NCBI GenBank assembly: GCA_003560875.1
Contig: PWJQ01000040.1
Span: forward strand, 1 to 36,819
Direction of reading: 5' to 3'
DNA length: 36,819 bases
Source: Methanomassiliicoccaceae archaeon
Lineage (GTDB): Archaea; Thermoplasmatota; Thermoplasmata; Methanomassiliicoccales; Methanomethylophilaceae
Of the stretch, positions 2,734 through 32,015 are shown in pieces. Below the pieces are notes generated by a model that worked only from the letters and a program-made list of their open reading frames with translations, was not told the DNA's origin and ran no database searches. Both the position numbers and the translations under genes were made by a program. Each line of letters starts with the position of its first letter. Positions within the stretch are counted from its first letter, which is position 1.

Positions 2734-2740
2734 ACAAAAC

Positions 2741-2755
2741 AGGGGGAATCCCCCT
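2741..2755 (+). terminator. Possible hairpin terminator after thermosome gene: AGGGGG-AAT-CCCCCT followed by a T-rich stretch
   Basis: Perfect 6-bp stem, 3-nt loop 8 bp after the stop, followed by ttaaatctctttta. Confidence 0.5.
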
Positions 2756-2787
2756 TTAAATCTCTTTTAATCAACGGGGCGATTGCT

Positions 2788-3309: not shown

Positions 3310-3311
3310 AA

Positions 3312-5156: not shown

Positions 5157-5161
5157 GTATC

Positions 5162-6338: not shown

Positions 6339-7098
6339 ATGGACGGCCCCATCGCCATATCAACCGAGGATTTCGCCTTATATCACGACTTGATCCGCAT
6401 ACTGCGGGACAGGAAAGAGGCATTCGTCTCCGTCCCCTTGGGGCAGCCGGTGCCTGACAACGTCTCGGTCCTGATATGCGCCCCCGCCGAGAATGCGCTC
6501 ACCCCCTTCCCGCGTAAGGTGAGTGCCGTCGATGCCTGGTCGGCGGTTATCAAGGCCTTGTGTATGAGGGATGGTACAGACGGAGGGCTGCTGGTGATCG
6601 GAGTGGACCCCGGCATGATGTCCGGCTATGCCCTGGTCCTCCGCGGTCGTACCATCGATTCCGGAACGGTATCCAAGCCCGAGGACCTCCGTCCCCTTCT
6701 CTCATCGACCATGGACTCCATCTCGCCATCACGCACAGTCCTGCGCATCGGCCACGGCGATCCAGAACCGTGACCGTTGCACACGTTCACTCTACGCGCT
6801 GGTGGACGAGGTGCAGGTCGTGGATGAGAGCCGTACCAGCGGTAAGAGTCCCACCGACCACATCGATGCCGCCGAGACCATCGCCCGCTGCGAGGGCGAA
6901 GGGTTGGCCGACGTGCCGGTCATCCGTCACTCCCCGGGATCGTTGCGCGAGCTCCAGAGGGTGAGCCGCCGGATCAGCGGTCATGTGACGATCAGCACAG
7001 CTCTGGCTGAGGACGTCGCCCACGGCCGTCTCTCCATGGAGGAGGCCATAAAGGCTCAGCGTCTCAGAGCTGAGGCACACCGCCGGGGATCTTCGTAA
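6339..7098 (+). pseudogene. RNase H-fold/RuvC-like archaeal protein gene split by an apparent frameshift near 6762
   Basis: Upstream frame ends ...GGLLVIGVDPGMMSGYAL...RTVLRIGHGDPEP* (stop 6771-6773). The +1 frame continues ...QNRDRCTRSLYALVDEVQVVDESRTSGKSPTDHIDAAETIARCEGEG... to 7098. The two halves read as one protein. Confidence 0.7.
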
Positions 7099-8581: not shown

Positions 8582-9822
8582 ACCGATCCCCATTTATCCA
8601 ATGCCGCCGCCAGCTCGGGATGCTCACGTGCGTACTCCGCCAATTCCATGCCCATGAAGGCGGCATCGACTGCCTGTGTCATCGCCATGGCCCCGCCGCG
8701 GATGCCGGCAGGATGTCCGGCGACCCCTCCTCCTGCTTGTATCTGGGAGTCATTACCGGCAATGTCCACCAGCTTCTTGACCATTCCGGGATGCAGTCCG
8801 CCGGAGCAGACGGGCATCATACGGCGATAGGGCACCGAGTCGTCGATGCAGGCGTCACGGTTGATAAGGTCATCTTGACAGGTCCCTCCCATCTTGCCCA
8901 CTCCCATCGTGCCGATGTGCAAGGCATCCCCTCCACACATCCTCACCAGTTTGGTGATGGGCAGCATAGCGATGCCCAGGTCGGGGTTGCGGGTGATGGC
9001 TCCGTGCATGGTACGGTGCACATGAACCGGGAGCTTTATGGAAGGGTCCTCGGCCAGAGCCTGCACGGCGGCGAAGCCGGCCGTGAGGACGTCGACCATT
9101 ATCTGTGTCGCCCCCAGCTCCTGCACCCTCTCCGCCAGTTCCACGATGCGGTGCCCGGATGTGCTGACGTTGATGGCGTGTATCATGTGATGACCCTCCT
9201 GACGGAGGGTGTCGATGGCCTCAGCGATGGCCACGGTACGGTCCTCGATGGGACAGAAGACCTGGTCCACCAGGGTCTCATCGTCCTTGCTGTTGGTCAG
9301 GCCTCCGCGACCGCATTCCAGTATGTAATCGGCGGTGTCCTTGGGAGAGAGGCCTATCTTAGGCTTCACGATGGTCCCCACCAAAGGCTTTTCGGGGCGT
9401 TTCACCCGCTTGCGCAGGTCATCGATACCATACTTAGGCCCCTTGTACTGCTCCACTATGCTCTTGGGGAAGACGACGTCCTCCAGCCTCACTCCCTGCA
9501 GGTCGCTGAGGCCGAACAGGTTACCGGCGATGATGCTCAGGATCTGAGGCACACCTCCGATGTCTATGCTGAAATCCTCTTCCGGGAAGGCTATGGTGGC
9601 GACATTGTCCTCCAAGCCGATGACCTTGGCGCCGTAGCGCTCGAAGATATCGTCCTTGAGGGTCACCAGGTCTGTCCATGTGCCAGTGGACTGCTCGGTG
9701 GCTATGGCCGCCGCCGCCTCCTCCATGGACATACAGTCTGTCTTCATGCGGTACGTGCAGATGACGTGGGAGTCCACGTCGATCTTCTCTCCCAGATGGA
9801 GGTATCGTTCGGAATATTGCAT
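8578..9822 (-). CDS. rbcL: Ribulose-bisphosphate carboxylase large chain, form III (archaeal)
   Basis: 414 aa: KPLVGTIVKPKIGLSPKDTADYILECGRGG...SKDDE, VHVHRTMHGAITRNPDLGIAM, GVGKMGG loop; gene context with DeoA and R15P isomerase. Confidence 0.97.
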   Translation of the reverse strand: MQYSERYLHLGEKIDVDSHVICTYRMKTDCMSMEEAAAAIATEQSTGTWTDLVTLKDDIFERYGAKVIGLEDNVATIAFPEEDFSIDIGGVPQILSIIAGNLFGLSDLQGVRLEDVVFPKSIVEQYKGPKYGIDDLRKRVKRPEKPLVGTIVKPKIGLSPKDTADYILECGRGGLTNSKDDETLVDQVFCPIEDRTVAIAEAIDTLRQEGHHMIHAINVSTSGHRIVELAERVQELGATQIMVDVLTAGFAAVQALAEDPSIKLPVHVHRTMHGAITRNPDLGIAMLPITKLVRMCGGDALHIGTMGVGKMGGTCQDDLINRDACIDDSVPYRRMMPVCSGGLHPGMVKKLVDIAGNDSQIQAGGGVAGHPAGIRGGAMAMTQAVDAAFMGMELAEYAREHPELAAALDKWGSV

Positions 9823-9826
9823 TTTT

Positions 9827-10753
9827 TCACTCTCTGTTCTCGAAGATGAAATCGTGACCGAGAATCTTCACAATGACCTCGTAGGCTGCGAAGGGCGGTA
9901 TCATCCCTATATCGGTCACTATCGAATCAATGTACTCGGGAGGGGTGGCATCGAAGACGGGGTTGCGGACCCCCACGCTCTCCGGGACCTTGGCGTCACC
10001 GATTATCTCCTTGCGGTCCCTCTCCTCTATCTCCACCAGATCCCCGAATAGGGATATGGGGGAGAACTTGTAGGTCTCACTGCACACCAGGAAGGGGACG
10101 CGGGCCTCATTGGCGATCAGTGCTATCTGCGAGGTGCCTATCTTGTTTATCAGAACGCCGCTGGATGTGATGGTGTCGGCACCCACCAGTACAAGGTCCA
10201 CCGACCGCATCACGCTCCTTACGGCGCTGTCGACGATCAAGGTCACGGGGATGCCCTCCTCGGAGAGCTCATTGACGGTGATGATCCCCTGCCGCCACGG
10301 TCGGGACTCGGTCGCTATGACCTGGACCTTCTTACCCTGCCGATGCGCCTCTTTGATGACGCTCAGGGCGGCGTGGCTGTTGCAATGCGTCAGTACCGTG
10401 TTACCATCTCTGATGCGTTTGGCACCGATGCGGCCGATGGTCTCCATGGCCTTTTCAGAGCGTTGGATGAAGGCCTGTGAATTGGCCATGACCTTGGCCT
10501 TCACGGCCTCAGCATCCTCCAGCCCCTCAATCCCATTCATGGCGGCCTGGACGCCGTTCCACAGTGAGATGGCGGTGGGCCGGGAAGCGAGTATGCGGAC
10601 CTTGGCCGCATCCAATTCTGAAAGCAAGGCATCAAGGTCCCCCGTCGATTCCGATGCCACATCACAGATGGCATTCACACCGGAGCGGGCGATGCGCCCC
10701 GCACCGCGGATCTCCATGGACTCGATGGCCTTGGCGACATCTTCAACAGTCAT
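9827..10753 (-). CDS. Ribose 1,5-bisphosphate isomerase (eIF2B-like)
   Basis: eIF-2B family ORF (VLTHCNSHAALSVIKEAHRQGKKVQVIATESRPWRQG, VDLVLVGADTITSSGVLINKIGTSQIALIA), adjacent to rbcL and deoA. Confidence 0.93.
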   Translation of the reverse strand: MTVEDVAKAIESMEIRGAGRIARSGVNAICDVASESTGDLDALLSELDAAKVRILASRPTAISLWNGVQAAMNGIEGLEDAEAVKAKVMANSQAFIQRSEKAMETIGRIGAKRIRDGNTVLTHCNSHAALSVIKEAHRQGKKVQVIATESRPWRQGIITVNELSEEGIPVTLIVDSAVRSVMRSVDLVLVGADTITSSGVLINKIGTSQIALIANEARVPFLVCSETYKFSPISLFGDLVEIEERDRKEIIGDAKVPESVGVRNPVFDATPPEYIDSIVTDIGMIPPFAAYEVIVKILGHDFIFENRE

Positions 10754-10767
10754 GAACAACATCAATC

Positions 10768-15693: not shown

Positions 15694-16341
15694 TCAGAGG
15701 TTCTTCACTTTCTCCCAGTCAGCGAGGAAGGCCTCTATGCCCTCATCCGTCTTGGGGTGGGAGACCATCTTCTTGAGGATATCATAGGGTATGGTCGCAA
15801 TGTGGACGCCTATGGATGAGGCCTGGCTCACATGCAGGGGGTGCCTGATGCTGGCGGCGATCACCTCGGCGTCGAAATCGTAGTTGTCCAGTATGTCCAT
15901 GATTTCCGAGACCACGTCCATGCCCACATGACCTATGTCATCCAGGCGTCCGATGAACGGGGAGATGTAGCGGGCACCGGCCTTGGCGGCCAGAAGGGCC
16001 TGCTGGGCGGAGAAGACGAGGGTCATGTTGACGTCTATCCCCTCGTTGTAGAGGGCCTTGGTGGCCTTCAGGCCTTCGATGCACATCGGCAGTTTGATGT
16101 TTATGTTGTGGTGGATCGCCGACAGCTCCATGCCCTCGTTGAACATCCCCTCTGCATCCAGGCTCATGACCTCGGCGGATATCGGGCCGTCCACTATCTC
16201 AGCTATCTCCGCGACCACGGTCTTGAGGTCCTTGCCCTCCTTGACTATCAGGCTGGGATTGGTGGTCACGCCATCCAATATCCCCCAGCTGTGTATCTCC
16301 TTGATCTTGTCGATATTAGCGGTGTCTATGAAAATCCTCAT
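15694..16341 (-). CDS. Transaldolase (short, F6P aldolase/TalC type)
   Basis: 215 aa: [36 protein letters not shown]. Confidence 0.95.
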
Positions 16342-16342
16342 A

Positions 16343-17308
16343 TCATTTCCTCCATAGGAATCCTTTCTTCTTGCGCTTACGGTCGATGACCTTACGGGCA
16401 GCGAAGACGATGTCCTCCTTGGTAAGGCCGTATTTGATCATGAGCTCCTCCGGTTCCCCGGACTCACCGAAACTGTCACGGACCCCGACACGGGACAGTG
16501 GCTGGTTGTCGTTCTCGCTGAGACATTCGGCCACGGCCGATCCCAGGCCGCCGATTATGCTGTGCTCCTCGGCGGTGACCACGCAACGGGTCCTGTCCGC
16601 CGATTCCAACAGGGTATCGGCGTCCAAGGGCTTGACCGTGGACATGTTGATGACCTCGGCGGAGACGCCATCCTCTTTCAGCATCTCCGCAGCCTCCAGG
16701 CATACGGAGACCATCTGCCCGCTTCCCACGAGCGTCACATCCTTGCCCTTCTTGAGGACTGTGGCCTTGCCTATGATGAATACATCCTCCTCCCCGGTTA
16801 TGACCGGGAAGTCGGCACGGCCCATGCGCATGTAGCAGGGTCCGTCATGTTCCGCCATGGCCATGGTGGCCTTGTAGGCCTCGTTGGCATCGGCGGGGCA
16901 TATGACCGTCATGTTCGGTAGTGAGCGCATCAATGAAACATCCTCCAGGGCTTGATGGGAGGCGCCGTCGCCACCCACGCTGATGCCGCAGTGTGTGGCC
17001 ACGATCTTGACGTTCAGGTCGGGATAGGCGACGGACTGTCTTATCTGATCCCAACATCTCCCAGTGGCGAAAACAGCGAAGGTCGATGCGAAGACCTTCT
17101 TGCCGGAGACCGCGAGCCCGGCCGCGGTGCCGATCATGTTCTGCTCCGCGATGCCGCATTGGAAGAAACGCTCCGGATACGACTTGGCGAAGTCACTGGT
17201 CTTGGTCGAACTGCCCAGGTCGGCATCGAGTACCACGATTTCCGCGTCCTTACCGCCCAGGTCGGCGAGGGCCTTTCCGAAGTAAGCTCTCTGCGCCACG
17301 TTCTTCAT
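16343..17308 (-). CDS. Transketolase C-terminal subunit (split)
   Basis: [70 protein letters not shown] overlap with the N-subunit gene at 17305-17308. Confidence 0.95.
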
Positions 17309-18123
17309 AGACACTCCTCCAGTTCGCACATGGCCTTCTCCTTCTGTTCCGGGTTGCAGCACTTGCCATGGAAGTCGGCGTTGTTCTCCATGAACGAAAC
17401 GCCGCGACCCTTGACGGTGTTGGCTATGACCACGGTGGGACGTCCGCGGAAACGCTTCGCGTCCTCGCAGGCCTTGATTATCGCGGCGAAATCGTGTCCG
17501 TCTATCTCCAAGACGTTCCATCCGAACGCCGTCCACTTGTCGGCCAGAGGCTCGATGGAAAGCACATCCTCGGTATCGCCCATGATCTGCAGTTTGTTCC
17601 GGTCTACGAAGACGGTGATGTTGTCCAACTTGTAATGCGCAGCGAGCATTGCGGCCTCCCAGTTCTGTCCGCTCTGCAACTCGCCGTCCCCGCAGAGACA
17701 GTATATGCGATGGTCGGAGGAATCGAGTTTAGCTGCCAGGGCCATGCCGTTGGCGATGCTGATGCCCTGACCCAATGAGCCGGTGGACATCTCTATACCC
17801 GGCAATTTACCGTATGACGGGTGGCCTTGAAGGCGGCTGCCCAGTTCACGAAGGGTGCGCAGCTCCTCCACGGGGAAGTATCCCGACTCCGCCAGAACGG
17901 CGTACAGGCCGGGGGCGACATGTCCCTTGGAGAGAACGAAACGGTCCCTTTTCTTCCACTGTGGCGCCTCCGGGTCGTGTTTCATCACATGGAAGTAAAG
18001 GGTGCAGAGTATCTCCGTGGCTGAAAGAGACCCCCCTGGGTGACCGGATCCGGCCGCGCAGGTCATATCGATAACATGGCGTCTTATGGTACGCGCCCTC
18101 TCCTTCAGAAAATCGAAATCCAT
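17305..18123 (-). CDS. Transketolase N-terminal subunit (split, TPP-binding)
   Basis: CAAGSGHPGGSLSATEILCTLYFHVM, SLGQGISIANGMALAAKL, CLCGDGELQSGQNWEAAMLAAHYKLDNITVFVDRN. A TTG at 18147 is an alternative start. Confidence 0.95.
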   Translation of the reverse strand: MDFDFLKERARTIRRHVIDMTCAAGSGHPGGSLSATEILCTLYFHVMKHDPEAPQWKKRDRFVLSKGHVAPGLYAVLAESGYFPVEELRTLRELGSRLQGHPSYGKLPGIEMSTGSLGQGISIANGMALAAKLDSSDHRIYCLCGDGELQSGQNWEAAMLAAHYKLDNITVFVDRNKLQIMGDTEDVLSIEPLADKWTAFGWNVLEIDGHDFAAIIKACEDAKRFRGRPTVVIANTVKGRGVSFMENNADFHGKCCNPEQKEKAMCELEECL

Positions 18124-18265
18124 TTCTTCATTGGGCAATTGAAACACTCCTGTATTGAATGGTATTGTATTTTGTAAGATGATGGTGTAAAAAAGATTTA
18201 CCTAGCGACTCCTTTAACAAAAGGGGGAGGCAAAAGGGTTCAGGACAACGGGTTTTCATGTGGCC

Positions 18266-20430: not shown

Positions 20431-20847
20431 ATGGGGACCTACAGGAAGGTTCTGAACTATGAGATGAAGAGCGGAGGGGTTCGTTACGTATGCGACGACG
20501 CCCGTGCCGTTCTGAAGGAGAGTGGCATCCAAGAGGGACTACTCTGCCTTTTCATCAAAGGTTCCACCGGATCACTGGCGTTCATGGAGAAGGACGCCGA
20601 TCTGGAACCCGACCTCATGGATGCCCTGGAGAGGGTCGCCCCCTCCGACGCCACCTACCGGCATGACCGGAAATGGGGCGATGGGAACGGGCACTCCCAC
20701 ATCCGCGCCAGTATCATGGGCGGATCGATTACCATTCCTTTCGCGGATGGCGAGATGGACCTGGGCCGATGGCAACAGGTGGCCCTGGTCGATAACGACG
20801 TAAGGGATCGCCAACGCGAACTGACCATACAGATAGTAGGTGAATGA
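20431..20847 (+). CDS. YjbQ/UPF0047 family protein
   Basis: 138 aa: LLCLFIKGSTGSLAFMEKDADLEPDLMDALERVAP...NGHSHIRASIMGGSITIPFADGEMDLGRWQQVALVDND. Confidence 0.93.
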   Translation: MGTYRKVLNYEMKSGGVRYVCDDARAVLKESGIQEGLLCLFIKGSTGSLAFMEKDADLEPDLMDALERVAPSDATYRHDRKWGDGNGHSHIRASIMGGSITIPFADGEMDLGRWQQVALVDNDVRDRQRELTIQIVGE

Positions 20848-20851
20848 CCTA

Positions 20852-22087
20852 ATGACAGTGAATATAAAATTCCTAGGAGGAGCAGACATAGTTGGCAGGA
20901 TGGGCATGCTGATGGAGGCCGGAGGTCGCAGCATGGTCTTCGAATACGGGATGAGCCCCACGAAGCCACCGAGCTATCCGCTGCCCGCCCCCAAGGTTGA
21001 CCACGCGTTCCTGACGCACTGCCACCTCGACCACTGCGGTATGATACCCTGGTTGACCAGCAGGTACGACAACGACGTGTTCACCGCGCCGATAACCGCT
21101 GAGATAGCCGAGATCATGATGTTCGACTCCCTAAAGATCGCCAAGGCGGAGGGATATCCCGAACCCTATAACGAATCGGACATAGACCGCACCATGAGGA
21201 ACGTGATACCTCTGGAGTTCGGTGATGTAATCGAGGTCGGGGACCTGGAGGTCGAGACCCACCGTGCCGGGCATGTGCCGGGGGCGATGATGTTCGAGGT
21301 CATAGACGATCGCACCACCCTTTACACCGGTGACATACACACGATCAACACCCGGCTCGTCGAGGCCGCGAAGCCCGTGAAGTGCGACAACCTCATAATC
21401 GAGGGCACATACGGAGGCCGTCTCCACCCCGACCGCAAAAAGTCCGAGAAGGACTTCCTGGACAAGATCAAAGAGGTCGTCGACCGTGGCGGCAAGGTCC
21501 TGATACCCTGTTTCGCCGTCGGTCGGACACAGGAGATCATGATGCTCCTGAACGGTGCCAACTTTGACAAATGGGTGGACGGCATGGGCCGCTCCATCGC
21601 ACGTCTGTACATGCAATACCCGGAGTACCTGATCAACCCCAAGAACCTCCGTGCCGCCCGCCGCTCATTCAATGAGGTGAAGAACGCACAGATGCGCGGG
21701 AAGGCCCGCAAGGGCGAGGTCATCGTGACGACCGGGGGGATGCTCGACGGAGGTCCGGTGCTAAACTACATGAAGAGCATAAAGGACGACCCACTATCGG
21801 CCATACTGATCACCGGCTACCAGGCCGAGGACACCAACGGCAGGTTGCTGCTGGAGTCTGGATGCGTCAACATCGACGGCAGCTTGGAGAAGGTGAACTG
21901 CGAGGTGCAGAGATATGACTTCTCCGCCCACGCCGACCACGACCAGCTGATGGAGTTCATCAGGGGATGCGACCCTGAGAACATCGTGATAATGCACTCC
22001 GAGAGCCGCGAACCACTCCAAGATGCACTGGCCGAGGAGTACAACGTCATACTTCCGGAACTGGATAAGAGCTATACCTTGGAGTGA
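20852..22087 (+). CDS. Beta-CASP metallo-beta-lactamase ribonuclease (archaeal CPSF-like)
   Basis: LTHCHLDHCGMIPWL (HxHxDH), FDSLKIAKAEGYPEPY, GKVLIPCFAVGRTQEIM, TTGGMLDGGPVLNYM, FSAHADHDQLMEFI. Confidence 0.93.
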   Translation: MTVNIKFLGGADIVGRMGMLMEAGGRSMVFEYGMSPTKPPSYPLPAPKVDHAFLTHCHLDHCGMIPWLTSRYDNDVFTAPITAEIAEIMMFDSLKIAKAEGYPEPYNESDIDRTMRNVIPLEFGDVIEVGDLEVETHRAGHVPGAMMFEVIDDRTTLYTGDIHTINTRLVEAAKPVKCDNLIIEGTYGGRLHPDRKKSEKDFLDKIKEVVDRGGKVLIPCFAVGRTQEIMMLLNGANFDKWVDGMGRSIARLYMQYPEYLINPKNLRAARRSFNEVKNAQMRGKARKGEVIVTTGGMLDGGPVLNYMKSIKDDPLSAILITGYQAEDTNGRLLLESGCVNIDGSLEKVNCEVQRYDFSAHADHDQLMEFIRGCDPENIVIMHSESREPLQDALAEEYNVILPELDKSYTLE

Positions 22088-22905
22088 GAGGCGTGGATGG
22101 TCTGAGGGCTTTCCTGGAGGAGGATGCCCCCGCCGGGGACGTTACCAGTGATGTCCTCATCCCTCCCGCCACGACGTCCAAGGCCATCGTCACCAGTGGT
22201 GGCGACGGCATCCTCGCCGGTGCCGAGGAGGCCGCCTGGCTCTTCACCGATGGCGGACTAGAGGTCAGGCTCGTCAAGAATGACGGCGACCTCGTCTCGG
22301 CAGGTGACGAGGTCATGGTTGTAGAGGGTCCGCTCCGAGAGATAATGCTACGCGAGCGGGTCTGCCTGAACATAATGATGTTCATGTCCGGTACCGCCAC
22401 CGAGACCTCCAAGGTGCTGGCGGCATGCCACGCGGTGAATCCCCATGTCAGTGTCGCCGCCACGCGCAAGACCCTCCCCGGCCTCCGTGGCCTGCAGAAG
22501 AAGGCCGTGAGATTGGCGGGCGGGGAGTCACACCGCGACACGCTCTCCCATCATATACTGGTGAAGGACAACCACATCCAAGCCGTCGGTGGCATGGACA
22601 ATGCGCTCAGGGCGCTCAAGGACGCCCCGTCGACCATAATCGAGGTGGAGGCGGAAACAGAACATGATGCGCTGTCGGCGGCCGCGGCCGGTGTGGATGT
22701 CGTACTCCTCGACAACATGTCCCCCGCGGAGGCGGGGATCTGTTACCGTTCCATCAAGGAATCGTACCCGCATGTCCTCGTGGAGGTGTCGGGCGGTATC
22801 GGCCCGGAAGACGCCCCCGTATACGCGAAATGCGCCGACCGTATCTCATTGGGTTATCTGACCCATTCCGCACCGTCCTTACAGTTCTCGTTGCACCTGT
22901 CCTAG
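22084..22905 (+). CDS. nadC: Nicotinate-nucleotide pyrophosphorylase (carboxylating)
   Basis: EEDAPAGDVTSDVL, NIMMFMSGTATETSKVLAACHAVNPHVSVAATRKTLPGLRGLQKKAVRLAGGESHRDTLSHHILVKDNHI. Confidence 0.95.
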   Translation: MRGVDGLRAFLEEDAPAGDVTSDVLIPPATTSKAIVTSGGDGILAGAEEAAWLFTDGGLEVRLVKNDGDLVSAGDEVMVVEGPLREIMLRERVCLNIMMFMSGTATETSKVLAACHAVNPHVSVAATRKTLPGLRGLQKKAVRLAGGESHRDTLSHHILVKDNHIQAVGGMDNALRALKDAPSTIIEVEAETEHDALSAAAAGVDVVLLDNMSPAEAGICYRSIKESYPHVLVEVSGGIGPEDAPVYAKCADRISLGYLTHSAPSLQFSLHLS

Positions 22906-23684
22906 TCACGGGTGCGATGATGGGACATGTAGTCGATGTCCCATCCCATACAACTGGCGACCAGCTCCGCCACATGGATCACCTTCTTGCCCCTCGTGAT
23001 AGTGTCGAACTGCAGGAAACAGAAGGGGCATGACGTTATCAACACATCCGCGTCGGAGAATTCATCGAGTGCCTCTTGGCTGACCCTTCTTGCAACCTCG
23101 TCGTTGACCGATGTCAGACTCCCGCCGCAACACACCTTGGCCTTTGGCAGCACCGCCTCCCCTCCCAGAGCCTCGACGATGTCCGCCAGCATGCGCTGTG
23201 CGCCCTCAGGCCCGCCCGCCATATGGTCCCCGTGACAACCGGGGTGTATGCCGAACCTGAGGTCCGTATCACGCACCGACGATGCGACGATAGAATCCAG
23301 TTCCGAGTGCAGCAAGGGCAGGAATCCCACGACCTCGGCCGGGCGGGCGTAGTTCATACCCATCTCCTTCAACACCTCGTTCGCCGTCTCAGCCCCACCG
23401 GAGTCCAGCACCTCTGAGACCTCATTCAGGGACAGGGTGCATCCATCGCAGAGGGTGAGGATGGAACCGTCCTGCTTCGAGGCGATGGAGTGCAGACGGG
23501 CGCCCGCGACCATCCACGTCTCAAGACCCAACGACCTCAGCCCCACCGGTTCGACGCAACATGTGAAACCGGGGAAATCCGAGAACTGGATTCCGAGGGT
23601 ATCGAGCACGTACCGGGCGGCGGATTCCACGAATGGGAGCTTTGAGGGTATGGCACATCCCGGATATAACAGCATTTCACTCAT
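22902..23684 (-). CDS. HdrB-like CCG-domain heterodisulfide reductase subunit
   Basis: MSEMLLYPGCAIPSKLPFVE; two CCG-type cysteine motifs (CCVEPVG...LCDGC; VCCGGSL...TSCPFC). Confidence 0.88.
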   Translation of the reverse strand: MSEMLLYPGCAIPSKLPFVESAARYVLDTLGIQFSDFPGFTCCVEPVGLRSLGLETWMVAGARLHSIASKQDGSILTLCDGCTLSLNEVSEVLDSGGAETANEVLKEMGMNYARPAEVVGFLPLLHSELDSIVASSVRDTDLRFGIHPGCHGDHMAGGPEGAQRMLADIVEALGGEAVLPKAKVCCGGSLTSVNDEVARRVSQEALDEFSDADVLITSCPFCFLQFDTITRGKKVIHVAELVASCMGWDIDYMSHHRTRD

Positions 23685-24138
23685 GTGTGAACCTCGTTCT
23701 GGAAACGACCTTTCCAAGCTCCCTCATGGCCCTGTCGCCGTTCTGCATTTCCGGTAAACCCATCTCCTCCCGTAGCTTGGCTGTCCGAGGTCCGGCCGGG
23801 AATCCTCTGCCCTCCTTGAGGAAAGACTTGGCGCCGCGGACGAACCTCTGCGGAGCCTCCCCCGATATAGCTGAACGGTAGCGCAGGTGGGTGATCAGAA
23901 GGGGAAGATGAATCCCGACGGGGCAGACGTCATCACAGATGTAGCACAGAAGACAATCCCAGACATCCTCTTCCGGTCTTCCGTCGATGAGGCCTCTGAC
24001 GACCTCATGGGGGTCGATCCCGCCATGCCTGGTGCTGGGGCAGGATTGGGAACACAGCCCGCAATCACGGCAGCTATCCAATGAGAAACGCACTGCAAGC
24101 CGCTCGTCCGATAGTTCCGCAGGGTCGAAATCGTCCAC
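23677..24138 (-). CDS. HdrC-like 2x[4Fe-4S] protein
   Basis: CRDCGLCSQSCP and CLLCYICDDVCP ferredoxin motifs; overlaps the start of the HdrB-like gene. Confidence 0.88.
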   Translation of the reverse strand: MDDFDPAELSDERLAVRFSLDSCRDCGLCSQSCPSTRHGGIDPHEVVRGLIDGRPEEDVWDCLLCYICDDVCPVGIHLPLLITHLRYRSAISGEAPQRFVRGAKSFLKEGRGFPAGPRTAKLREEMGLPEMQNGDRAMRELGKVVSRTRFTHE

Positions 24139-24395: not shown

Positions 24396-25976
24396 CTAGT
24401 GTCTGAACACGCGACAGCCGGTGAACACCATGGCCATGCCGTGCTCGTCGGCGGCCTGGATGACCTCCTCGTCCCTTATCGAACCTCCAGGTTGGATAAT
24501 GGCCGTGACGCCGGCCTTGGCGGCCTCGTCGACCCCATCGCGGAACGGGAAGAAGGCATCCGAGGCCATGACGCTGCCTTGGGTGGCGTCCCCTCCCTTG
24601 ATGCGGGCGATCATCGCCGAGTCGACCCGGCTCATCTGGCCGGCCCCGATGCCGACCGCCCTTTCCTCCTTCACATAGACCACGGAGTTCGAGGAGACAT
24701 GCTTCACGAGTTTCCATGCGAACTGCAGTGCCCTCTGCTCCTCCTCGGTGGGGGGGCGCTTGGTGACGACCTTGAGGTCCTCATCGGAGATCCGAAGGCC
24801 CTCATCGGTCTGAACCAGCATACCTCCTTGGACCTTCTTCATCTTCAATTCCCTCGTCCGCACCTGCGGTCCGATGGGGGAGTTCGTGCGTAGCAGACGG
24901 ACGTTCTTCCTCTGCAACAGTATGTCCAATGCCTCGGGCTCGAAGTCCGGGGCGATGATGGCCTCTACGAAGTACTTGTTGTCGCGTATCTCCTCAGCGA
25001 TCGACCCGGGGCACTCGCGGTTGAGGCAAATGACGCAACCGAAGGCCGATTTGGGGTCGACAGCGTACGCGGTGACAAAGGCCTCATGGACATCATCGGC
25101 ACTGGCCAGTCCACAGGGGTTGGTGTGCTTCATGATGACCGCGGTGGGCCTGTCGAAATCCATGGCGATGTCCATGGCCTTGTCGAGGTCGAGGATGTTG
25201 TTGAACGACAACTGTTTACCGTGCAACTGCTCCGCCTTGGCCACCGTGGGCCCGGGCGTGAAGGGGTCGGCGTAGAACGCGGCCTTCTGGTCGGGGTTCT
25301 CGCCGTAACGCAGCTCCATGACCTTCTCGGTGGGTATGGGCATGGATTCCGGGAACAGTTCCCCATCGAAGCGCCGACGCAATTGGTCGGCTATCATGGC
25401 GTCATAGTTGGCGCTGACCACGAACGCGTCAACCATCAATTCCGCCCGCAGCGACTCGTCCATGCCGCCCGCCCGTAGCGACTCGATGACCTTGGGGTAT
25501 TGGGAGGGCGCGGTCACGACCGCCACGGACTTGTAGTTCTTGGCCGCGGCGCGTACCATGCTGGGGCCGCCGATGTCTATGTTCTCGACTATCGCCTCCA
25601 GATCCCCGGGGCTGTCGAGGACGGTCCTCTTGAAAGGGTAGAGGTTGATGACCACCATGTCGATGGGTCCGATGTCCAGAGCGGATATAGCATCCATGTG
25701 CTCCGGCAGGTCACGACGCGCCAGGATCCCGGCGTGTAGGCGGGGGTGCAGGGTCTTCACCCTCCCGTCGAGCATCTCGGGGAAACCGGTTATCTCCGCG
25801 ACCTCCACAACGGCGATGCCGTTGTCCTTGAGGAGCTTGGCCGTGCCTCCGGTGGATATAAGCTCCACGCCCAAGGAGGCCAACTCCATGGCCAACTCCA
25901 CTATCCCTTCCTTATCAGATACACTTAGAAGCGCCCTCTCGATTTTTGTCAGTGAGATTCCTCCGGATGTGGGCAT
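24396..25976 (-). CDS. purH: Bifunctional AICAR transformylase/IMP cyclohydrolase
   Basis: 526 aa: [75 protein letters not shown]. Confidence 0.97.
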
Positions 25977-26090
25977 ACAGAAGGTATACCATGCCTATAT
26001 TGCTAGGTCAATCATAAATGTAATGCATCGCCGCACTGAAGACGACTAATCAATTTTTTAATAATGTCGCTATATCAAGACCCGAAGGAC

Positions 26091-26870
26091 ATGATGATTA
26101 TCAGTGAGAGGATCAACGGCCTTTTCCGTTCGGTGGGCAAGGCCATAGACGATAAGGACTCGACATTCATCCAGTCCCTTACACAAAAACAGATAGAGGC
26201 GGGCGCAACCGCATTGGACGTCAACGTCGGTCCTGGAAGGGGCGCCGATGGTCCTGAGGACATGCGTTGGTTGGTCAGGACCGTGCAGGAGGTCACAGAC
26301 CTCACCCTATGCATCGACACGCCGGGACTGAAGACCATGTCCGCCGGGCTCGAGGTCTGTGAGAACCCCGCGATCATAAACTCCACCACCGCCGAGATGG
26401 AGAAGATGCAGGGATTCTTCCCCCTCGCCAGTGAGCATGATGCGGACATCATCTGCCTGACCATGGACGAGAGGGGCATACCCAATGACGCCGACAGCCG
26501 TGCTGAGATGGCCATGCTCATGCTCACCACGGCGATGGAGTACGAGGTAATGCCGGACCGTATAATATTGGACCCGCTGGTGCTCCCTGTCGTGGCGGCC
26601 CAGGACCAAGGTGCGAAGGTGATCGAGGCCCTGAGGATGTTCCAGATGCTCAACGACCCCGCTCCGAGGACGGTCGTCGGTCTCAGCAACGTTTCCAACG
26701 GCTGTCGCGACCGCAGCCTGCTCAACAGCACCTATCTGGCGATGCTCATGGGCGCCGGCCTATCCGCCGCCATCCTCGATCCCGAGGACAAGGACACCAT
26801 GGACACCATCAAGACGGCCCAGGTGCTGTTGGATCAGAAACTGTACTGTGAGGACTACCTGCGCGCCTGA
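26091..26870 (+). CDS. Methyltetrahydrofolate(pterin):corrinoid protein methyltransferase (MeTr/AcsE-like)
   Basis: MMIISERINGLF...QIEAGATALDVNVGPGRGADGPEDMRWLVRTVQEVTDLTLCIDTPGLKTMSAGLEVC...; pterin-binding TIM-barrel pattern. ATG 26064 is an alternative start. Confidence 0.88.
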   Translation: MMIISERINGLFRSVGKAIDDKDSTFIQSLTQKQIEAGATALDVNVGPGRGADGPEDMRWLVRTVQEVTDLTLCIDTPGLKTMSAGLEVCENPAIINSTTAEMEKMQGFFPLASEHDADIICLTMDERGIPNDADSRAEMAMLMLTTAMEYEVMPDRIILDPLVLPVVAAQDQGAKVIEALRMFQMLNDPAPRTVVGLSNVSNGCRDRSLLNSTYLAMLMGAGLSAAILDPEDKDTMDTIKTAQVLLDQKLYCEDYLRA

Positions 26871-27778
26871 GGCCGCGGTAGGAGTCCCGCCCTCTCGACT
26901 ATCTCGGGCACAGCGCTCTCCCAGTTCACCGGCATCAGATGGACGCCCTTGATCCCGGGCAGGTCGCGGAGCTCGTCGATGGTCTCCAGGCAGATCCTCA
27001 TCCCCTCCGCCTTCTCATCGCTGGCGTTGGCCATCCTCCGCAGCAGTTCATCGGGTACGCTCATACCCGGTACCTTGTCGGCCATGAACCTTGCCGCTCT
27101 ATAGGAGCGTAATGGAAGCACGCCCGCGATGATGTGCGTCCTCTCGTCCAACTTCTTGGAGAGAACCGACCGGTGCCATTCACGGAAACGGTCGAGGTCG
27201 AATATCGCCTGCGTCTGGATGAAATCAGCGCCCGCCCCGACCTTCTTACTCAGTCGGATGACCCCCATCTCGAGAGGGTCGGCGAAGGGGTTCGCCGCCG
27301 CCCCGAGGAACATATGGGGCGGGATCTTGATGGAATCCCCGCACCACATCTCCCCTTTGTCGCACATGCGGCGGAAAACCATCAACTGCTGCGTGGAGTC
27401 GAGGTCGAAGACGTTGCGTGACTGGGGCTGATTGCCGAACTTCTGATGGTCGCCGGTTATACACAGCATGTTACGGACGCCCAGCGCGGCGGCGCCCAGC
27501 ATCTCGGACTGCATGGCGAGACGGTTACGGTCGCGGCAGGTCATCTGCATGATGGGCTCCACGCCCTCCTGGATGCAGAAGAGGCTGGCGGCCAATGAGG
27601 ACATCCTCACTATCGCCGTCTGGTTATCGGTGACGTTGAAGGCATCGGCGTAACCCTTCATCACGCGGGCCTTCTCCCTCACCGGTCCGCCATCGGCGGA
27701 CTTGGGGGGGCCGATCTCGGAGGTGACCACGAACTCCCCGGCCTCGAGAAGGGCCTGCAGGGAACTGCCGTCGTTCAT
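26855..27778 (-). CDS. metF: Methylenetetrahydrofolate reductase
   Basis: VTSEIGPPKSADGGPVREKARVMKGYADAFNVTDNQTAIVRMSSLAASLF...QMTCRDRNRLAMQSEMLGAAALGVRNMLCITGDH; ATGA overlap with metV. Confidence 0.95.
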   Translation of the reverse strand: MNDGSSLQALLEAGEFVVTSEIGPPKSADGGPVREKARVMKGYADAFNVTDNQTAIVRMSSLAASLFCIQEGVEPIMQMTCRDRNRLAMQSEMLGAAALGVRNMLCITGDHQKFGNQPQSRNVFDLDSTQQLMVFRRMCDKGEMWCGDSIKIPPHMFLGAAANPFADPLEMGVIRLSKKVGAGADFIQTQAIFDLDRFREWHRSVLSKKLDERTHIIAGVLPLRSYRAARFMADKVPGMSVPDELLRRMANASDEKAEGMRICLETIDELRDLPGIKGVHLMPVNWESAVPEIVERAGLLPRPQARR

Positions 27779-28449
27779 CTCCGTTCCTCCTTCTTCACCA
27801 CTATGCGCGAGCCGCCGTCACGTCCCTTGGACCAATCCTTCGGCGGCAGCATTATCTCCAGAAGGTCGAGCCTCCCCTTGCTTCTGACCTGGTCGTATAT
27901 GAGCTGCCAGGCGCAATCCCTTTCCGGCGAGAGCTCGCATTTGCCTCCTTGTGATCCACCGCAAGGGCCGTTCTGCAGCATCTTCGAACAACGGGCGATG
28001 GGGCATATGCCGCCACTCAGATGGATGGTGCAGTCCCCGCAGCCGGCGCAGCGTTCCTTCCATCTCCCCTTCCCCTCCGGGGAACCCATGGCGGAGGTGT
28101 CTATCCCCGGTATGACGACCCTTTCGGGATAGACCTCCGACAGCACCTGTGCACCGACCCCGCATCCCAGGGAGACGACGACATCGCTCTCCTTCACCAC
28201 TCCCGCTATCTCCTGGTCGAAGTCCTTCTCGCACTGACGTTGTAGTGTCACGGTGGAGACCGTCCAACCCAGTTCCTGGGAGGCGGAGTGATCTTCCAGC
28301 GATGAGGCCAGTTCGGTGACCTCCTTCTCACCTCCCGCGAGACAGACGGCCACACAGGAGCGGCATCCCACCACTAGTATCCTGCCGCCTCCCTCGGACT
28401 CCACCATGCTGATGATGTCCGCCAATGGTTTCTGCTCGCCGATTATCAT
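27775..28449 (-). CDS. metV: MetV-like methylene-THF reductase zinc/C-terminal domain protein
   Basis: MIIGEQKPLADIISMVE...ILVVGCRSCVAVCLAGGEKE...CAGCGDCTIHLSGGICPIARCSKMLQNGPCGGSQGGKCEL; directly upstream of metF. Confidence 0.9.
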   Translation of the reverse strand: MIIGEQKPLADIISMVESEGGGRILVVGCRSCVAVCLAGGEKEVTELASSLEDHSASQELGWTVSTVTLQRQCEKDFDQEIAGVVKESDVVVSLGCGVGAQVLSEVYPERVVIPGIDTSAMGSPEGKGRWKERCAGCGDCTIHLSGGICPIARCSKMLQNGPCGGSQGGKCELSPERDCAWQLIYDQVRSKGRLDLLEIMLPPKDWSKGRDGGSRIVVKKEERR

Positions 28450-28566
28450 GGTCGCACCCTCCTCCCCTCGGGAAGGACAATCCAATCAAGAATAAGGGCG
28501 ATATAACCTTTATGTCCTGAGGGCTTGTTGTCAATGACACGATGATATCGGGAGGCGGGAAGTGAT

Positions 28567-29391
28567 ATGAGGGTACTGGCATTCACCATAGACCTCGACC
28601 GGGACTGCAACACCGCCGTGCGCGGTGAGACGGCGGCGGCATCGCGATCCTGCGGCGTCATGACCGCCCCCTGTCATGACGCCTCCTCGCAGGGCATGGA
28701 GCTCCTCGCTGACATGCTGAGGTCGATGGCGTTCCCCGCCACGGTCTTCTCCGAGGGGGACTCGTTGCGCAGCCTGCCCGAACCATCGCTGCTGCGCGGT
28801 CTTGAGCCCGCCTGCCATGGGATGGAGCATGAGGACCTCACCGGCGAATCCACCGGCATAATGTTGGAAGACGACCAGCTGGCGGACATAATCGCACGGT
28901 CCTGGGACGCGGTGGTCTCCACCACCGGCGCCGTGCCGCGCGGTTTCCGTGCTCCATACTTGAACATAGACCCCCGCGTGCTCGGCCTCGTGAGGGAACA
29001 AGGGTTCAGCTACGACTCATCGATGACCGAGGAGGTCGTCAACGGGGCGCTCAAGCCCCACTTCCTGCCCCAGGGCCTGTGGGAGTTCCCCCTGGCGCGC
29101 GACACCGATGCCGATGGCAAGGTGATCGATTCATACCTCTGGGCCATGCACGAGGGCCGAAGGCCAGAATCGGATTACATCCGCATGATCGACCGTTTCC
29201 AAGAAGGCGTCCTGGTGATGGCTACGCATAGTTGGCACGTGATGGAGAGCGTAAGGGGAGGCGCCAAGGACTCCAGGCAGACCTCCGCGGAGCTGGACGC
29301 CATAAGCAGGATGCTGGGGCACGCCCAGGACTCGGGGTTCGAGCTGTTGACGCTGTCCGCGGCCGAGGACCTGCTCAACGCAGGCCGGTGA
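28567..29391 (+). CDS. Polysaccharide deacetylase family protein
   Basis: MRVLAFTIDLDRDCN...HGMEHEDLT...GAVPRGFRAPYLNIDPRVLGLVREQGFSYDSSM...LVMATHSWH. Confidence 0.85.
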   Translation: MRVLAFTIDLDRDCNTAVRGETAAASRSCGVMTAPCHDASSQGMELLADMLRSMAFPATVFSEGDSLRSLPEPSLLRGLEPACHGMEHEDLTGESTGIMLEDDQLADIIARSWDAVVSTTGAVPRGFRAPYLNIDPRVLGLVREQGFSYDSSMTEEVVNGALKPHFLPQGLWEFPLARDTDADGKVIDSYLWAMHEGRRPESDYIRMIDRFQEGVLVMATHSWHVMESVRGGAKDSRQTSAELDAISRMLGHAQDSGFELLTLSAAEDLLNAGR

Positions 29392-31045
29392 CCTGCCCGC
29401 ATTCATCGAGGTCTATGGTCATCGCCGACGGCTTCTTCGGCAGCCCGGGCATGAGGTTCATCTGCCCGCAGACCGGGACCACGAACCCGGCTCCGCTGGA
29501 GATGGTCATCTCCCGCACGGTCAGCTTCCATCCCTTCGGCGCCCCCCGTTGCCGCGGGTCGTCGCTCAGGGAGGCTTGCGTCTTTGCCATGCAGACCGGC
29601 AGATGACCGTAGCCGTGAGCCTCGATGGACTCCAGCGACTTCTCCGCCGCGCTGAGGAATATGACCTGCCCGGCACCGTATATGAGCTTGGCAACGGTCT
29701 CGACCTTCTCCCTGATGGGGAGGGTGGTGTCATACAGCATGCGGAAGTCGCCATCATTGCGGTCGATGGCCGCCAGGACCTTGCGCGCCAACTCCTCGCC
29801 GCCTGCACCGCCGTCCTCGAAGACGGTGGACACCGCCGCCTCCACGCCGAGTTCGGCACAATGCTCCATCACCGCTGCGAGCTCCTCGGGACTGTCTCCG
29901 GGGAAGCGGTTGACGGCGACCACCGCCGGAAGTCCGAAAAGTCCTATGTTGGATATGTGACGGTCAAGGTTACCGAATCCCTGTCGCAGAGCATCCATGT
30001 CCGCCTGTTGGCAATCCTCGACACATTTGCCGCCATGCATCTTGAGCGCCCTGACCGAGGCCACCAGCACCACGCAGTCCGGCACCAGGCCCGATTGTCT
30101 GCACACTATGTTGAAGAACTTCTCCGCCCCCAGGTCGGCGGCGAAGCCGGTCTCGGTGACCACATAGTCCCCCATTTTCAGGGCGTAGCGGGTGGCGAGG
30201 ACCGAGTTCGTACCATGGGCGATGTTGGCGAAGGGGAAACCGTGCACGAACACCGGCTGACCCTCAAGGGTCTGCACCAGGTTGGGGCATATCGCGTCCT
30301 TGAGGAGCGCCATCAGGGCCCCGACGCATCCCAGTTGGCGGGCCAATACGGGATTGCCCTCGTGGTCGTACGCCACCGTGATCCTCTCCAACCTCTCCCG
30401 GAGGTCCTCCTGGCCGTTGGCGAGTGCGAGTATGGCGCTTATCTCCGATGCCGGAGTTATCATGAAGGAGCTCTCATGAGGGACACCGCCCCTCACCTTC
30501 CAGCCCAGGCCCATGACGATGTGCCTCAGCTCACGGGACCCGATGTCCATGGCCTTGCCGAGCAGGATGCGGGTGGGGTCTATGTCGAGATCGTTGCCTT
30601 TGGCGATATGACTCTCCAATATCGCCGAGAGGAGATTATGCGCCGCTCCCACGGCATGGATGTCGCCGGTGAAATGAAGGTTGATGTCCACCATGGGATG
30701 CACCTGGGCCTTGCCGCCGCCGGTCGCTCCTCCCTTGATGCCGAATATCGGCCCCAACGACGGCTCCCTCAAGGTCCCTATGGCATCGGCACCTAGCCGA
30801 CCGAGCCCCTGCACGAGGCCGATGGTGGTGACCGTCTTCCCCTCTCCCGCGGGGGTGGCGGTTATGGCCGTCGTGACGATGAGCTTACCGTTGGGGCGTC
30901 CGTCGAAACGGGTCAGTGAGGTCAAGGGCACCTTGGCCGCATCCCTGCCGTAGAGCAGCACGTCTTCCCAGCCCAGTCCCAGGGACTCCGCAACCTCCAA
31001 AATGGGGCGTACGCCGCCGCTTGCACCGTCGTTTTCCGAGCTCAT
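29375..31045 (-). CDS. fhs: Formate-tetrahydrofolate ligase
   Basis: 556 aa: TAITATPAGEGKTVTTIGLVQGL, REPSLGPIFGIKGGATGGGKAQVHPMVDINLHFTGDIHAVGAAHNLLSA. Confidence 0.97.
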   Translation of the reverse strand: MSSENDGASGGVRPILEVAESLGLGWEDVLLYGRDAAKVPLTSLTRFDGRPNGKLIVTTAITATPAGEGKTVTTIGLVQGLGRLGADAIGTLREPSLGPIFGIKGGATGGGKAQVHPMVDINLHFTGDIHAVGAAHNLLSAILESHIAKGNDLDIDPTRILLGKAMDIGSRELRHIVMGLGWKVRGGVPHESSFMITPASEISAILALANGQEDLRERLERITVAYDHEGNPVLARQLGCVGALMALLKDAICPNLVQTLEGQPVFVHGFPFANIAHGTNSVLATRYALKMGDYVVTETGFAADLGAEKFFNIVCRQSGLVPDCVVLVASVRALKMHGGKCVEDCQQADMDALRQGFGNLDRHISNIGLFGLPAVVAVNRFPGDSPEELAAVMEHCAELGVEAAVSTVFEDGGAGGEELARKVLAAIDRNDGDFRMLYDTTLPIREKVETVAKLIYGAGQVIFLSAAEKSLESIEAHGYGHLPVCMAKTQASLSDDPRQRGAPKGWKLTVREMTISSGAGFVVPVCGQMNLMPGLPKKPSAMTIDLDECGQVTGLR

Positions 31046-31077
31046 CCGAACCCCAATCGACTCTCCATAGATTATCT

Positions 31078-31093
31078 TTTTCAGTTATGAAAA
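31078..31093. repeat. Perfect 6-4-6 inverted repeat TTTTCA-GTTA-TGAAAA in the fhs/folD divergent promoter
   Basis: Read directly; followed by a TATA-like aatatatat at 31095-31103 about 28 bp upstream of the folD ATG. Confidence 0.7.
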
Positions 31094-31130
31094 GAATATA
31101 TATCGACCTAGCATAGTGCAAAAAGATAGG

Positions 31131-32015
31131 ATGAGTCACCGTCTGATTAACGGCAGGGATGTGGCCGCCCAGGTCACAGAGGCATTGGAGGACAGGCTGC
31201 AGGCCTTGAGGGCCCAGGACACCAATCCCGGATTGGCGGTGGTGGTCGTCGGTGACGACCCCGCGTCCCATGTCTACGTGCGGATGAAGGGCAAGGCCTG
31301 CGAGAGGTTGGGCATGCTGTCCCGCACGCACATCCTCCCTTCAACGACATCCGAGGATGACCTCCTCGACCTGATCGACGCTCTCAACGCCGACGGAGAG
31401 ATTCACGGCATTCTATGTCAACTGCCGCTCCCGCCGCACATAAATGAACGCAAGGTGATCGAGCGCATCGACCCCCGCAAGGACGTGGATGCCTTCCATC
31501 CTTACAACGTCGGCCGCATGCTCATCGGGGACCCTCTGTTCCTCCCCGCCACGCCGGCGGGCGTTCAGCGTCTCCTCATCAGTCACGACATCGAGACCCG
31601 TGGAAAGCACGTGGTGGTCCTCGGTCGCAGCAACATCGTGGGCAAGCCCATGGCCTCCATCCTTATGCAGAAGGGGGAGGGCGGCGATGCCACGGTGACT
31701 GTGGCCCACTCCCGTAGCACCGACCTCCCTGGCCTCTGCCGACAAGCGGACATCCTCATCGCCGCGGTGGGCATACCGTTCTTCGTCAAGGCGGACATGG
31801 TCAAGGAGGGGGCGGTGGTCATCGATGTGGGCACCAACCGTGTCGACGACCCCGGGAGCGAGAAAGGCTACCGCCTCGTGGGGGATGTGGATTTCGACAA
31901 CGTCAAGGAGAAGGCGGCGGCGATCTCACCCTCACCAGGAGGTGTGGGTCCCATGACCATCGCCATGCTCATGGAGAACACCGTCAAGGCCGCCGAGATG
32001 ACATTGCGCCCTTAA
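31131..32015 (+). CDS. folD: Bifunctional methylene-THF dehydrogenase/methenyl-THF cyclohydrolase
   Basis: VVVGDDPASHVYVRMKGKACERLGM, ILCQLPLPPHINERKVIERIDPRKDVDAFHPYNVGRML, VVLGRSNIVGKPMASILMQ. Confidence 0.97.
   Translation: MSHRLINGRDVAAQVTEALEDRLQALRAQDTNPGLAVVVVGDDPASHVYVRMKGKACERLGMLSRTHILPSTTSEDDLLDLIDALNADGEIHGILCQLPLPPHINERKVIERIDPRKDVDAFHPYNVGRMLIGDPLFLPATPAGVQRLLISHDIETRGKHVVVLGRSNIVGKPMASILMQKGEGGDATVTVAHSRSTDLPGLCRQADILIAAVGIPFFVKADMVKEGAVVIDVGTNRVDDPGSEKGYRLVGDVDFDNVKEKAAAISPSPGGVGPMTIAMLMENTVKAAEMTLRP

What the first reader, a model, noticed from the sequence alone, without database searches (positions are those of the whole stretch)
24396..32015. Complete bacterial-type tetrahydrofolate C1 (methyl-branch) island in an archaeal genome
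Sequence: purH, a MeTr/AcsE-like pterin:corrinoid methyltransferase, metF, metV, fhs and folD lie within about 7.6 kb, interrupted only by a polysaccharide deacetylase gene. Established: archaeal methanogens normally carry C1 units on H4MPT, whereas Fhs, FolD, MetF/MetV and MeTr form the THF methyl branch of the Wood-Ljungdahl pathway in acetogenic bacteria. No H4MPT enzyme (Ftr, Mch, Mtd, Mer, Mtr) is in this window. Inference: the organism has a physically clustered THF methyl branch linking formate to methyl-corrinoid. It could run reductively (acetyl-CoA synthesis), or in reverse, drawing methyl groups from methylotrophic corrinoid proteins into methylene-/formyl-THF for purines (PurH) and other biosynthesis. 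THF genes have been discussed for some Thermoplasmatota, so novelty must be checked against the literature.
Basis: partly seen in the sequence, partly recalled or inferred. Interest (0 to 1): 0.78.

Follow-up and report, generated by a model that had tools for sequence, protein, structure and literature searches.

The report
Folate one-carbon island in methanogen
A salt-lake methane-making archaeon carries the enzymes that pass one-carbon units from formate, via folate, to a vitamin-B12 protein; this is the methyl half of an acetyl-CoA pathway already reported for its order, and the newer observation is how the pieces are kept together or lost.

Summary
The island is real: purH, a CH3-H4F:corrinoid methyltransferase (MeTr), metF, metV, fhs and folD at the stated coordinates, with a HdrBC-like pair beside it. 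The host is a Methanomassiliicoccales methanogen (McrA present), nearest to MAGs from hypersaline soda lakes. MeTr is an AcsE-type enzyme: its best solved matches are Moorella and Carboxydothermus AcsE, and the pterin/transfer residues are kept. In related genomes the same genes sit beside acsB-acsD-acsC-cooC-mesB-acsV, so the window holds the methyl half of a Wood-Ljungdahl superlocus; the acs half lies on another contig of this genome. All 34 MeTr+ genomes of the order also encode CoFeSP. MeTr and MetFV come and go together, whereas Fhs and CODH do not follow them. Mch (H4MPT) is absent from 61/61 genomes. Trees show one Thermoplasmatota clade, not a recent bacterial import or a chimera. Presence of an H4F branch in this order is published (PMC6147122, PMC10804542). 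What seems less documented: the AcsE-CoFeSP assignment, the conserved superlocus, and eight near-complete genomes with ACS/CoFeSP/MeTr/MetFV but no CODH. Direction of flux is not shown; I favour reversible anabolic use (formate to methyl-CoFeSP, then acetyl-CoA and methionine).

The parts
22902..23717 (-). HdrB-like protein with two CCG domains (below the cut-off for canonical heterodisulfide reductase B); candidate electron-transfer partner
   Evidence: TIGR03288 120 bits (cut-off 345), two PF02754 domains, solved HdrB E 5e-33; neighbour of purH in genus g1 and in family f4
23677..24138 (-). HdrC-like 4Fe-4S protein, overlaps hdrB
   Evidence: TIGR03290 68 bits (cut-off 160)
24396..25976 (-). 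purH, AICAR formyltransferase/IMP cyclohydrolase (uses 10-formyl-THF)
   Evidence: PRK00881 708 bits, cut-off 402
26064..26870 (+). MeTr, AcsE-type CH3-H4F:corrinoid methyltransferase
   Evidence: PRK07535 above cut-off; solved AcsE of Moorella (2e7f, E 3.5e-74) and Carboxydothermus (2yci); D85, N106, D170, N209 invariant
26855..27778 (-). metF, methylene-THF reductase catalytic subunit
   Evidence: PF02219 E 4e-40; convergent with MeTr, 16-base overlap
27775..28485 (-). metV, Fe-S subunit of MetFV-type MTHFR; 4-base overlap with metF
   Evidence: PF12225 E 4e-33; NGPCGG motif (motif defined in PMC8515935)
28567..29391 (+). polysaccharide deacetylase (NodB-like), conserved neighbour of unknown relevance
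   Evidence: PF01522 E 2e-6; conserved place in all six families
29375..31045 (-). fhs, formate-THF ligase
   Evidence: 751 bits, cut-off 652; solved FTHFS E 7e-190
31116..32015 (+). folD, methylene-THF dehydrogenase/cyclohydrolase
   Evidence: PF02882 E 8e-67, PF00763 E 7e-42

Best explanation
The island is the tetrahydrofolate methyl branch of an acetyl-CoA (Wood-Ljungdahl) pathway in a Methanomassiliicoccales methanogen. Fhs and FolD turn formate into 10-formyl- and methylene-THF (10-formyl-THF also feeds PurH). MetFV reduces methylene-THF to CH3-THF, probably with electrons from ferredoxin or from a HdrA/HdrBC-type module encoded next to it. MeTr, an AcsE orthologue, moves the methyl group between CH3-THF and the corrinoid iron-sulfur protein AcsCD (CoFeSP), which is encoded with ACS, AcsV and MesB on another contig of the same genome. 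From CoFeSP the methyl group can go to acetyl-CoA (ACS, with CO from CODH where CODH is present) or to methionine (MesB). Shown: gene identities, gene order, co-distribution, tree placement. Inferred: substrate specificity, the CoFeSP partnership, the electron donor, and the direction. I think the most likely role is anabolic and reversible, mainly formate to methyl-CoFeSP.
For: MeTr aligns full length (47% identity) with the solved Moorella and Carboxydothermus AcsE, far ahead of methionine synthase domains, with pterin/transfer residues kept. All 34 MeTr+ genomes encode CoFeSP. In named relatives the same genes are contiguous with acs genes: L227 has acsB-acsD-acsC-cooC-mesB-acsV-purH-MeTr-metF-metV-HdrA-like-deacetylase-DUF3786-fhs-folD within 20.8 kb; in other Thermoplasmatota MeTr follows cooS/acsB-acsD-acsC-cooC-acsV and in bacteria it follows acsD in the acs operon. 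This genome has AcsV, MesB, AcsC, AcsD and ACS on C15. MeTr, MetF and MetV come and go together (34/33/32 genomes; none in the other 27), 5 of 5 independent changes on the aEF-2 tree, while Fhs stays in 21 of 27 MeTr- genomes. Mch absent in 61/61.
Against: The more specific NCBIfam AcsE model (NF040758) is not passed (181 of 370 bits). No biochemical data. Co-loss of adjacent genes may be single deletions, and 5 of 5 pairs gives only p = 0.0625. CODH was not found in this 81%-complete genome, and is absent from eight near-complete MeTr+ genomes, so net CO2-to-acetyl-CoA synthesis is not general. Nine MeTr- genomes keep CoFeSP, so CoFeSP does not need MeTr.
Confidence: 0.72

Rival explanations
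1. Same enzymes run in reverse: ACS cleaves acetyl-CoA, the methyl group goes by CoFeSP and MeTr to THF, and MetFV/FolD oxidise it to methylene- and formyl-THF for serine, thymidylate and purines, with CO released. This resembles the incomplete pathway of Dehalococcoides mccartyi, but with MeTr and MetF added.
For: Eight MeTr+ genomes of at least 90% completeness (G007, G011, G023, G041, G044, G048, G058, G060; G048 is one contig) lack CODH by two models but keep CoFeSP, and ACS with an intact A-cluster signature in G048. D. mccartyi: PMC7005905, PMC7857596. Formate dehydrogenase reported missing in the order (PMC6147122).
Against: Fhs remains in nearly all genomes, so formate can already supply formyl-THF; the genus mates of the window (G001, G002, G005) do have CODH.
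Confidence: 0.28
2. MeTr takes methyl groups from methylotrophic corrinoid proteins (methanol, methylamines) into THF for purines, as the first reader and Lang 2015 (quoted in PMC6147122) suggest.
For: The organism is a methyl-reducing methanogen by its order; MT-III-type THF methyltransferases of this fold exist in acetogens (own knowledge).
Against: MeTr sits with acs genes, not with mta/mtb genes, across the order, phylum and bacteria; it is missing from many genomes of the same family that lack CoFeSP although that family too is methanogenic, and it never occurs without CoFeSP.
Confidence: 0.12
3. The island is a recent bacterial acquisition or an assembly chimera.
For: Enzyme classes are typical of acetogenic bacteria.
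Against: Same gene order in 20 of 20 relatives read; thermosome, aMBF1, Taw2 and other archaeal genes on the same contig; GC 0.61 against 0.59 and GC3 like the neighbours; MeTr and ACS of the order are monophyletic and lie with other Thermoplasmatota.
Confidence: 0.02

Closest known systems
THF (H4F) branch reported in Methanomassiliicoccales (Speth and Orphan 2018, PMC6147122; Xie et al. 2024, PMC10804542)
   Same: Complete C1-THF pathway without H4MPT; metF absent in part of the order; same order of archaea
   Different: Those reports list genes; they propose MtrAH as the methyl-THF transferase, or do not name MeTr in the passages read. Here AcsE-type MeTr, its synteny and its link to CoFeSP are shown for a soda-lake genus
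Bacterial Wood-Ljungdahl operon of acetogens (Moorella, Carboxydothermus; AcsE, AcsBCD, MetFV, Fhs)
   Same: Same enzymes, same partners in one cluster; MeTr 47% identical to Moorella AcsE
   Different: Archaeal clade, different gene order (acsB-acsD-acsC), MesB and purH in the cluster, no formate dehydrogenase reported, CODH optional
Thermoplasmatota sister orders with acsA-E and H4F genes (Ca. Gimiplasmatales, PMC11264602)
   Same: Same branch; sister Thermoplasmatota MeTr 51-61% identical and mostly next to acs genes
   Different: Non-methanogenic; CODH and ACS fused in one protein in the loci read; purH/deacetylase/folD arrangement is specific to the order
Incomplete Wood-Ljungdahl pathway of Dehalococcoides mccartyi (PMC7005905, PMC7857596)
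   Same: ACS and CoFeSP with MesB, no CODH
   Different: D. mccartyi lacks MetF and AcsE; MeTr+ CODH- genomes of this order have both

Membership tests
AcsE (CH3-H4F:CoFeSP methyltransferase) | passes PRK07535 family cut-off | tested here: met
   284.7 against 259 bits
AcsE (CH3-H4F:CoFeSP methyltransferase) | passes the narrow NCBIfam exception model NF040758 CODH_ACS_meth | tested here: not met
   180.9 against 370 bits; this model is an 'exception' type narrower than the family, so the result lowers certainty about strict equivalence
AcsE (CH3-H4F:CoFeSP methyltransferase) | pterin-binding and transfer residues (Moorella D75, N96, D160, N199; roles from own knowledge) | tested here: met
   D85, N106, D170, N209 invariant in 12 sequences
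AcsE (CH3-H4F:CoFeSP methyltransferase) | encoded with CoFeSP/ACS | tested here: met
   in the window's own genome the acs genes are on another contig (C15)
AcsE (CH3-H4F:CoFeSP methyltransferase) | transfers methyl between H4F and AcsCD | not testable with these tools
   needs purified proteins
Dihydropteroate synthase | best match to DHPS rather than corrinoid methyltransferase | tested here: not met
   no DHPS model hit in NCBIfam; a chain labelled DHPS (4o0q) 160 bits against 253 for AcsE
MetFV-type methylene-THF reductase | adjacent metV-metF, NGPCGG motif in MetV | tested here: met
   and sequence; definition in PMC8515935
MetFV-type methylene-THF reductase | 6S form with HdrABC-MvhD | tested here: inconclusive
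   HdrBC-like pair in window; HdrA-like genes beside metV in families f2, f3, f5, f6; MvhD not sought
Complete Wood-Ljungdahl pathway | ACS and CoFeSP in the genome | tested here: met
   G000:C15
Complete Wood-Ljungdahl pathway | CODH in the genome | tested here: inconclusive
   not found in this 81%-complete genome; found in three genus mates
Complete Wood-Ljungdahl pathway | formate dehydrogenase | not tested
   reported missing from the order in PMC6147122
H4MPT methyl branch | Mch present | tested here: not met
   0 of 61 genomes, controls ring; Ftr, Mtd, Mer, Mtr not searched here

The most novel reading that the evidence does not exclude
In several Methanomassiliicoccales the CODH half of an ancestral fused CODH-ACS was lost while ACS, CoFeSP, MeTr and MetFV were kept, giving a methanogen that uses ACS as an acetyl-CoA-cleaving, CO-releasing source of methyl groups for folate and methionine, with MeTr-MetFV as the valve between CoFeSP and the folate pool.
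Probability: 0.28. Interest if true: 0.65.

Novelty: new member of a known kind. Interest (0 to 1): 0.45.

Why it matters
It replaces a loose list of folate genes in a methanogen order by a testable circuit with a named methyl acceptor (CoFeSP), and shows which parts are separable: formate-to-purine genes are general, MetFV-MeTr is an optional add-on found only with CoFeSP, and CODH is lost repeatedly. If the CODH-less genomes really run ACS backwards, that would be an unusual carbon economy for a methanogen, bearing on how acetate, formate and CO are shared in gut and sediment communities.

Tried and rejected
Pfam Meth_synt_2 (PF01717) gave only weak hits and missed MesB; MesB was assigned by its place beside CoFeSP and by PMC7857596, not by a profile, and the 351-aa protein has no Pfam or NCBIfam match. 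The first aEF-2 tree was spoiled by six antisense frames and was rebuilt. The phyletic link MeTr-CoFeSP is nested (34 of 34) but not significant by independent pairs (p 0.5). MeTr-CODH association was tested and not found. Chimerism, recent bacterial import and DHPS identity were considered and rejected. MetV has no match in the PDB. Papers by Lang 2015 and Borrel 2016 are not in the library; they are quoted second hand. No structure prediction was run, because MeTr is 47% identical to solved AcsE.
Full report
Observation. metF and metV overlap by four bases; MeTr and metF are convergent and overlap by 16 bases; deacetylase and fhs are also convergent and overlapping. A HdrB-like/HdrC-like pair lies directly beyond purH.

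Host. The window is contig 7 of a 1.05-Mb, 71-contig genome, 81% complete, with McrA. The closest named MeTr relatives are Candidatus Methanomethylophilaceae/Methanomassiliicoccaceae MAGs CSBr16_211 (94%) and CSSed10_308 (93%), then three further MAGs at 85%. A published survey of Kulunda Steppe hypersaline soda lake sediments describes three Mcr-encoding Methanomassiliicoccales-affiliated MAGs (PMC6146748); that these MAGs belong to that project is my inference from their isolate names. Thermosome, aMBF1, Taw2 and other archaeal genes lie on the same contig, the island has ordinary composition, and 20 of 20 relatives read have matching gene order, so chimerism is excluded for practical purposes.

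What MeTr is. It is 47% identical over its length to Moorella AcsE and 47% to Carboxydothermus AcsE, far above methionine-synthase domains, and keeps the pterin and transfer residues. It passes PRK07535 but not the narrow exception model NF040758. In a tree of 83 sequences the order is one clade (99/98) inside one Thermoplasmatota group that is separated from all bacterial sequences sampled (100/99). Some rows carry the submitter label 'Euryarchaeota' and are counted as Methanobacteriota by the tool, which I take to be a labelling matter. ACS shows the same split (99); MetF of the order is one clade (98). No outgroup was used, so whether the ancestor got the genes from bacteria is open. Fhs is different: families f3 and f5 carry another Fhs lineage at the same place, that is, replacement in situ.

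What it works with. In named relatives the island is continuous with acetyl-CoA synthase genes: L227 shows acsB-acsD-acsC-cooC-mesB-acsV-purH-MeTr-metF-metV-HdrA-like genes-deacetylase-DUF3786-fhs-folD in one 20.8-kb stretch; other Thermoplasmatota show cooS/acsB-acsD-acsC-cooC-acsV-MeTr-DUF3786; bacteria show cooS-acsB-acsC-acsV-cooC-acsD-MeTr, in some with metV-metF and fhs. In the window's own genome AcsV, MesB, AcsC, AcsD and ACS are on contig 15. The simplest reading is that MeTr serves CoFeSP, as AcsE does in acetogens.

Distribution over 61 genomes of the order. MeTr 34, MetF 33, MetV 32. No MeTr- genome has MetF or MetV. The two mismatches are G046, where the contig ends 72 bases past MeTr, and G039, where metF lies next to the deacetylase with no metV between. 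CoFeSP is in all 34 MeTr+ genomes and in nine MeTr- genomes. Fhs is in 54, including 21 of the 27 MeTr- genomes. Mch is in none. On an aEF-2 tree MeTr changes five times, and MetF changes with it in 5 of 5 independent pairs (p 0.0625, the least that five pairs can give); the two genes are neighbours, so single deletions may explain this. CODH changes 11 times and does not follow MeTr. Of 34 MeTr+ genomes 19 have CODH; eight of the 15 without it are at least 90% complete, one (G048) being a single contig. G048 keeps ACS with the cysteines of the A-cluster signature (CxxC...C...C and CGC) and AcsC, AcsD, CooC, MesB.

How it works. Shown by sequence: enzyme identities, order, co-distribution. Inferred: formate to 10-formyl-THF (Fhs), to methylene-THF (FolD), to CH3-THF (MetFV), to CH3-CoFeSP (MeTr), then to acetyl-CoA (ACS) or methionine (MesB). 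Purified MetFV of C. ljungdahlii uses ferredoxin, and Moorella MetFV forms a complex with HdrABC-MvhD (PMC8515935); HdrA-like genes beside metV in families f2, f3, f5 and f6 and HdrBC beside purH in the window's genus make a Hdr-linked MetFV plausible here. The direction is not settled by genes. Because Fhs stays in most MeTr- genomes, purines do not need MeTr-MetFV, which argues against 'methyl groups to purines' as the essential role. Where CODH is missing, net synthesis of acetyl-CoA from CO2 is not possible without outside CO, and the branch should serve methionine, or run from acetyl-CoA towards folate with CO released, as discussed for D. mccartyi, which however lacks MetF and AcsE (PMC7005905, PMC7857596).

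Known or new. Speth and Orphan 2018 (PMC6147122) state that the complete C1-THF pathway is in M. luminyensis, M. intestinalis and MALP and that other members lack only metF, cite Lang 2015 for an oxidative role in purine synthesis, and propose MtrAH as a methyl-THF:CoM transferase. Xie et al. 2024 (PMC10804542) report an H4F branch and the absence of ftr and mch over 243 genomes. Price et al. 2021 (PMC7857596) report MesB as the only methionine synthase of the order. PMC11264602 reports acsA-E and H4F genes in sister orders. The finding is therefore a new member of a known kind. I found no paper in the held library that ties MeTr to CoFeSP in this order, or that describes the superlocus or ACS without CODH there, but the library lacks most subscription journals.

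Noticed in passing
L180:3983-8086(+), L175:12774-16850(-), L254:620-4756(+), L262:720-4886(+), L250:3569-7678(+), L274:731-4885(+): CODH (CooS) and ACS (AcsB) are fused in one open frame of about 1360-1390 aa in four sister Thermoplasmatota and in at least four genomes of the order (G038, G057 read; G040, G043 by frame length); elsewhere in the order ACS stands alone and CODH, if present, is unlinked. One paper search found no description.
   Followed up: partly
G048 (one contig), G041, G044, G058, G060, G007, G011, G023: Near-complete genomes with CoFeSP, ACS, MeTr and MetFV but no CODH by TIGR01702 or Prismane; ACS was read in full only in G048.
   Followed up: partly
L095, L097, L111 (families f3, f5): fhs replaced in situ by another Fhs lineage that groups with bacterial sequences while the gene order is kept.
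   Followed up: partly
window 28567-29391: NodB-like polysaccharide deacetylase keeps its place between metV and fhs in all six families but diverges faster (about 32-44% between families) than its neighbours.
   Followed up: no
L093:19230-19859(+): DUF3786 protein recurs in acs/MeTr clusters of Thermoplasmatota and several bacteria; function unknown; missing beside the deacetylase in the window's genus.
   Followed up: no
L096:10421-11338: G039 (family f4) has metF but no metV, with an unusually long metF branch.
   Followed up: no
window 7064-10765: AMP phosphorylase, type III-like RubisCO and ribose-1,5-bisphosphate isomerase in a row, the AMP pathway; RubisCO scores below the type III equivalog cut-off (368 of 497 bits).
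   Followed up: no
window 15694-18147: Split transketolase (two genes) next to a fructose-6-phosphate aldolase/TalC-like gene.
   Followed up: no
window 1105-6301: Thermosome followed by a GrpE-DnaK-DnaJ set.
   Followed up: no
window 20840-22087: Short beta-CASP protein (415 aa) related to aCPSF1 and to the type VII Cas14 nuclease model but below both cut-offs.
   Followed up: no
L092:11599-12720(+): URO-D-family protein (MtaA/MtbA-like fold family) with cysteine desulfurase and IscU-like genes inserted between metF and MeTr in one genome of family f2.
   Followed up: no
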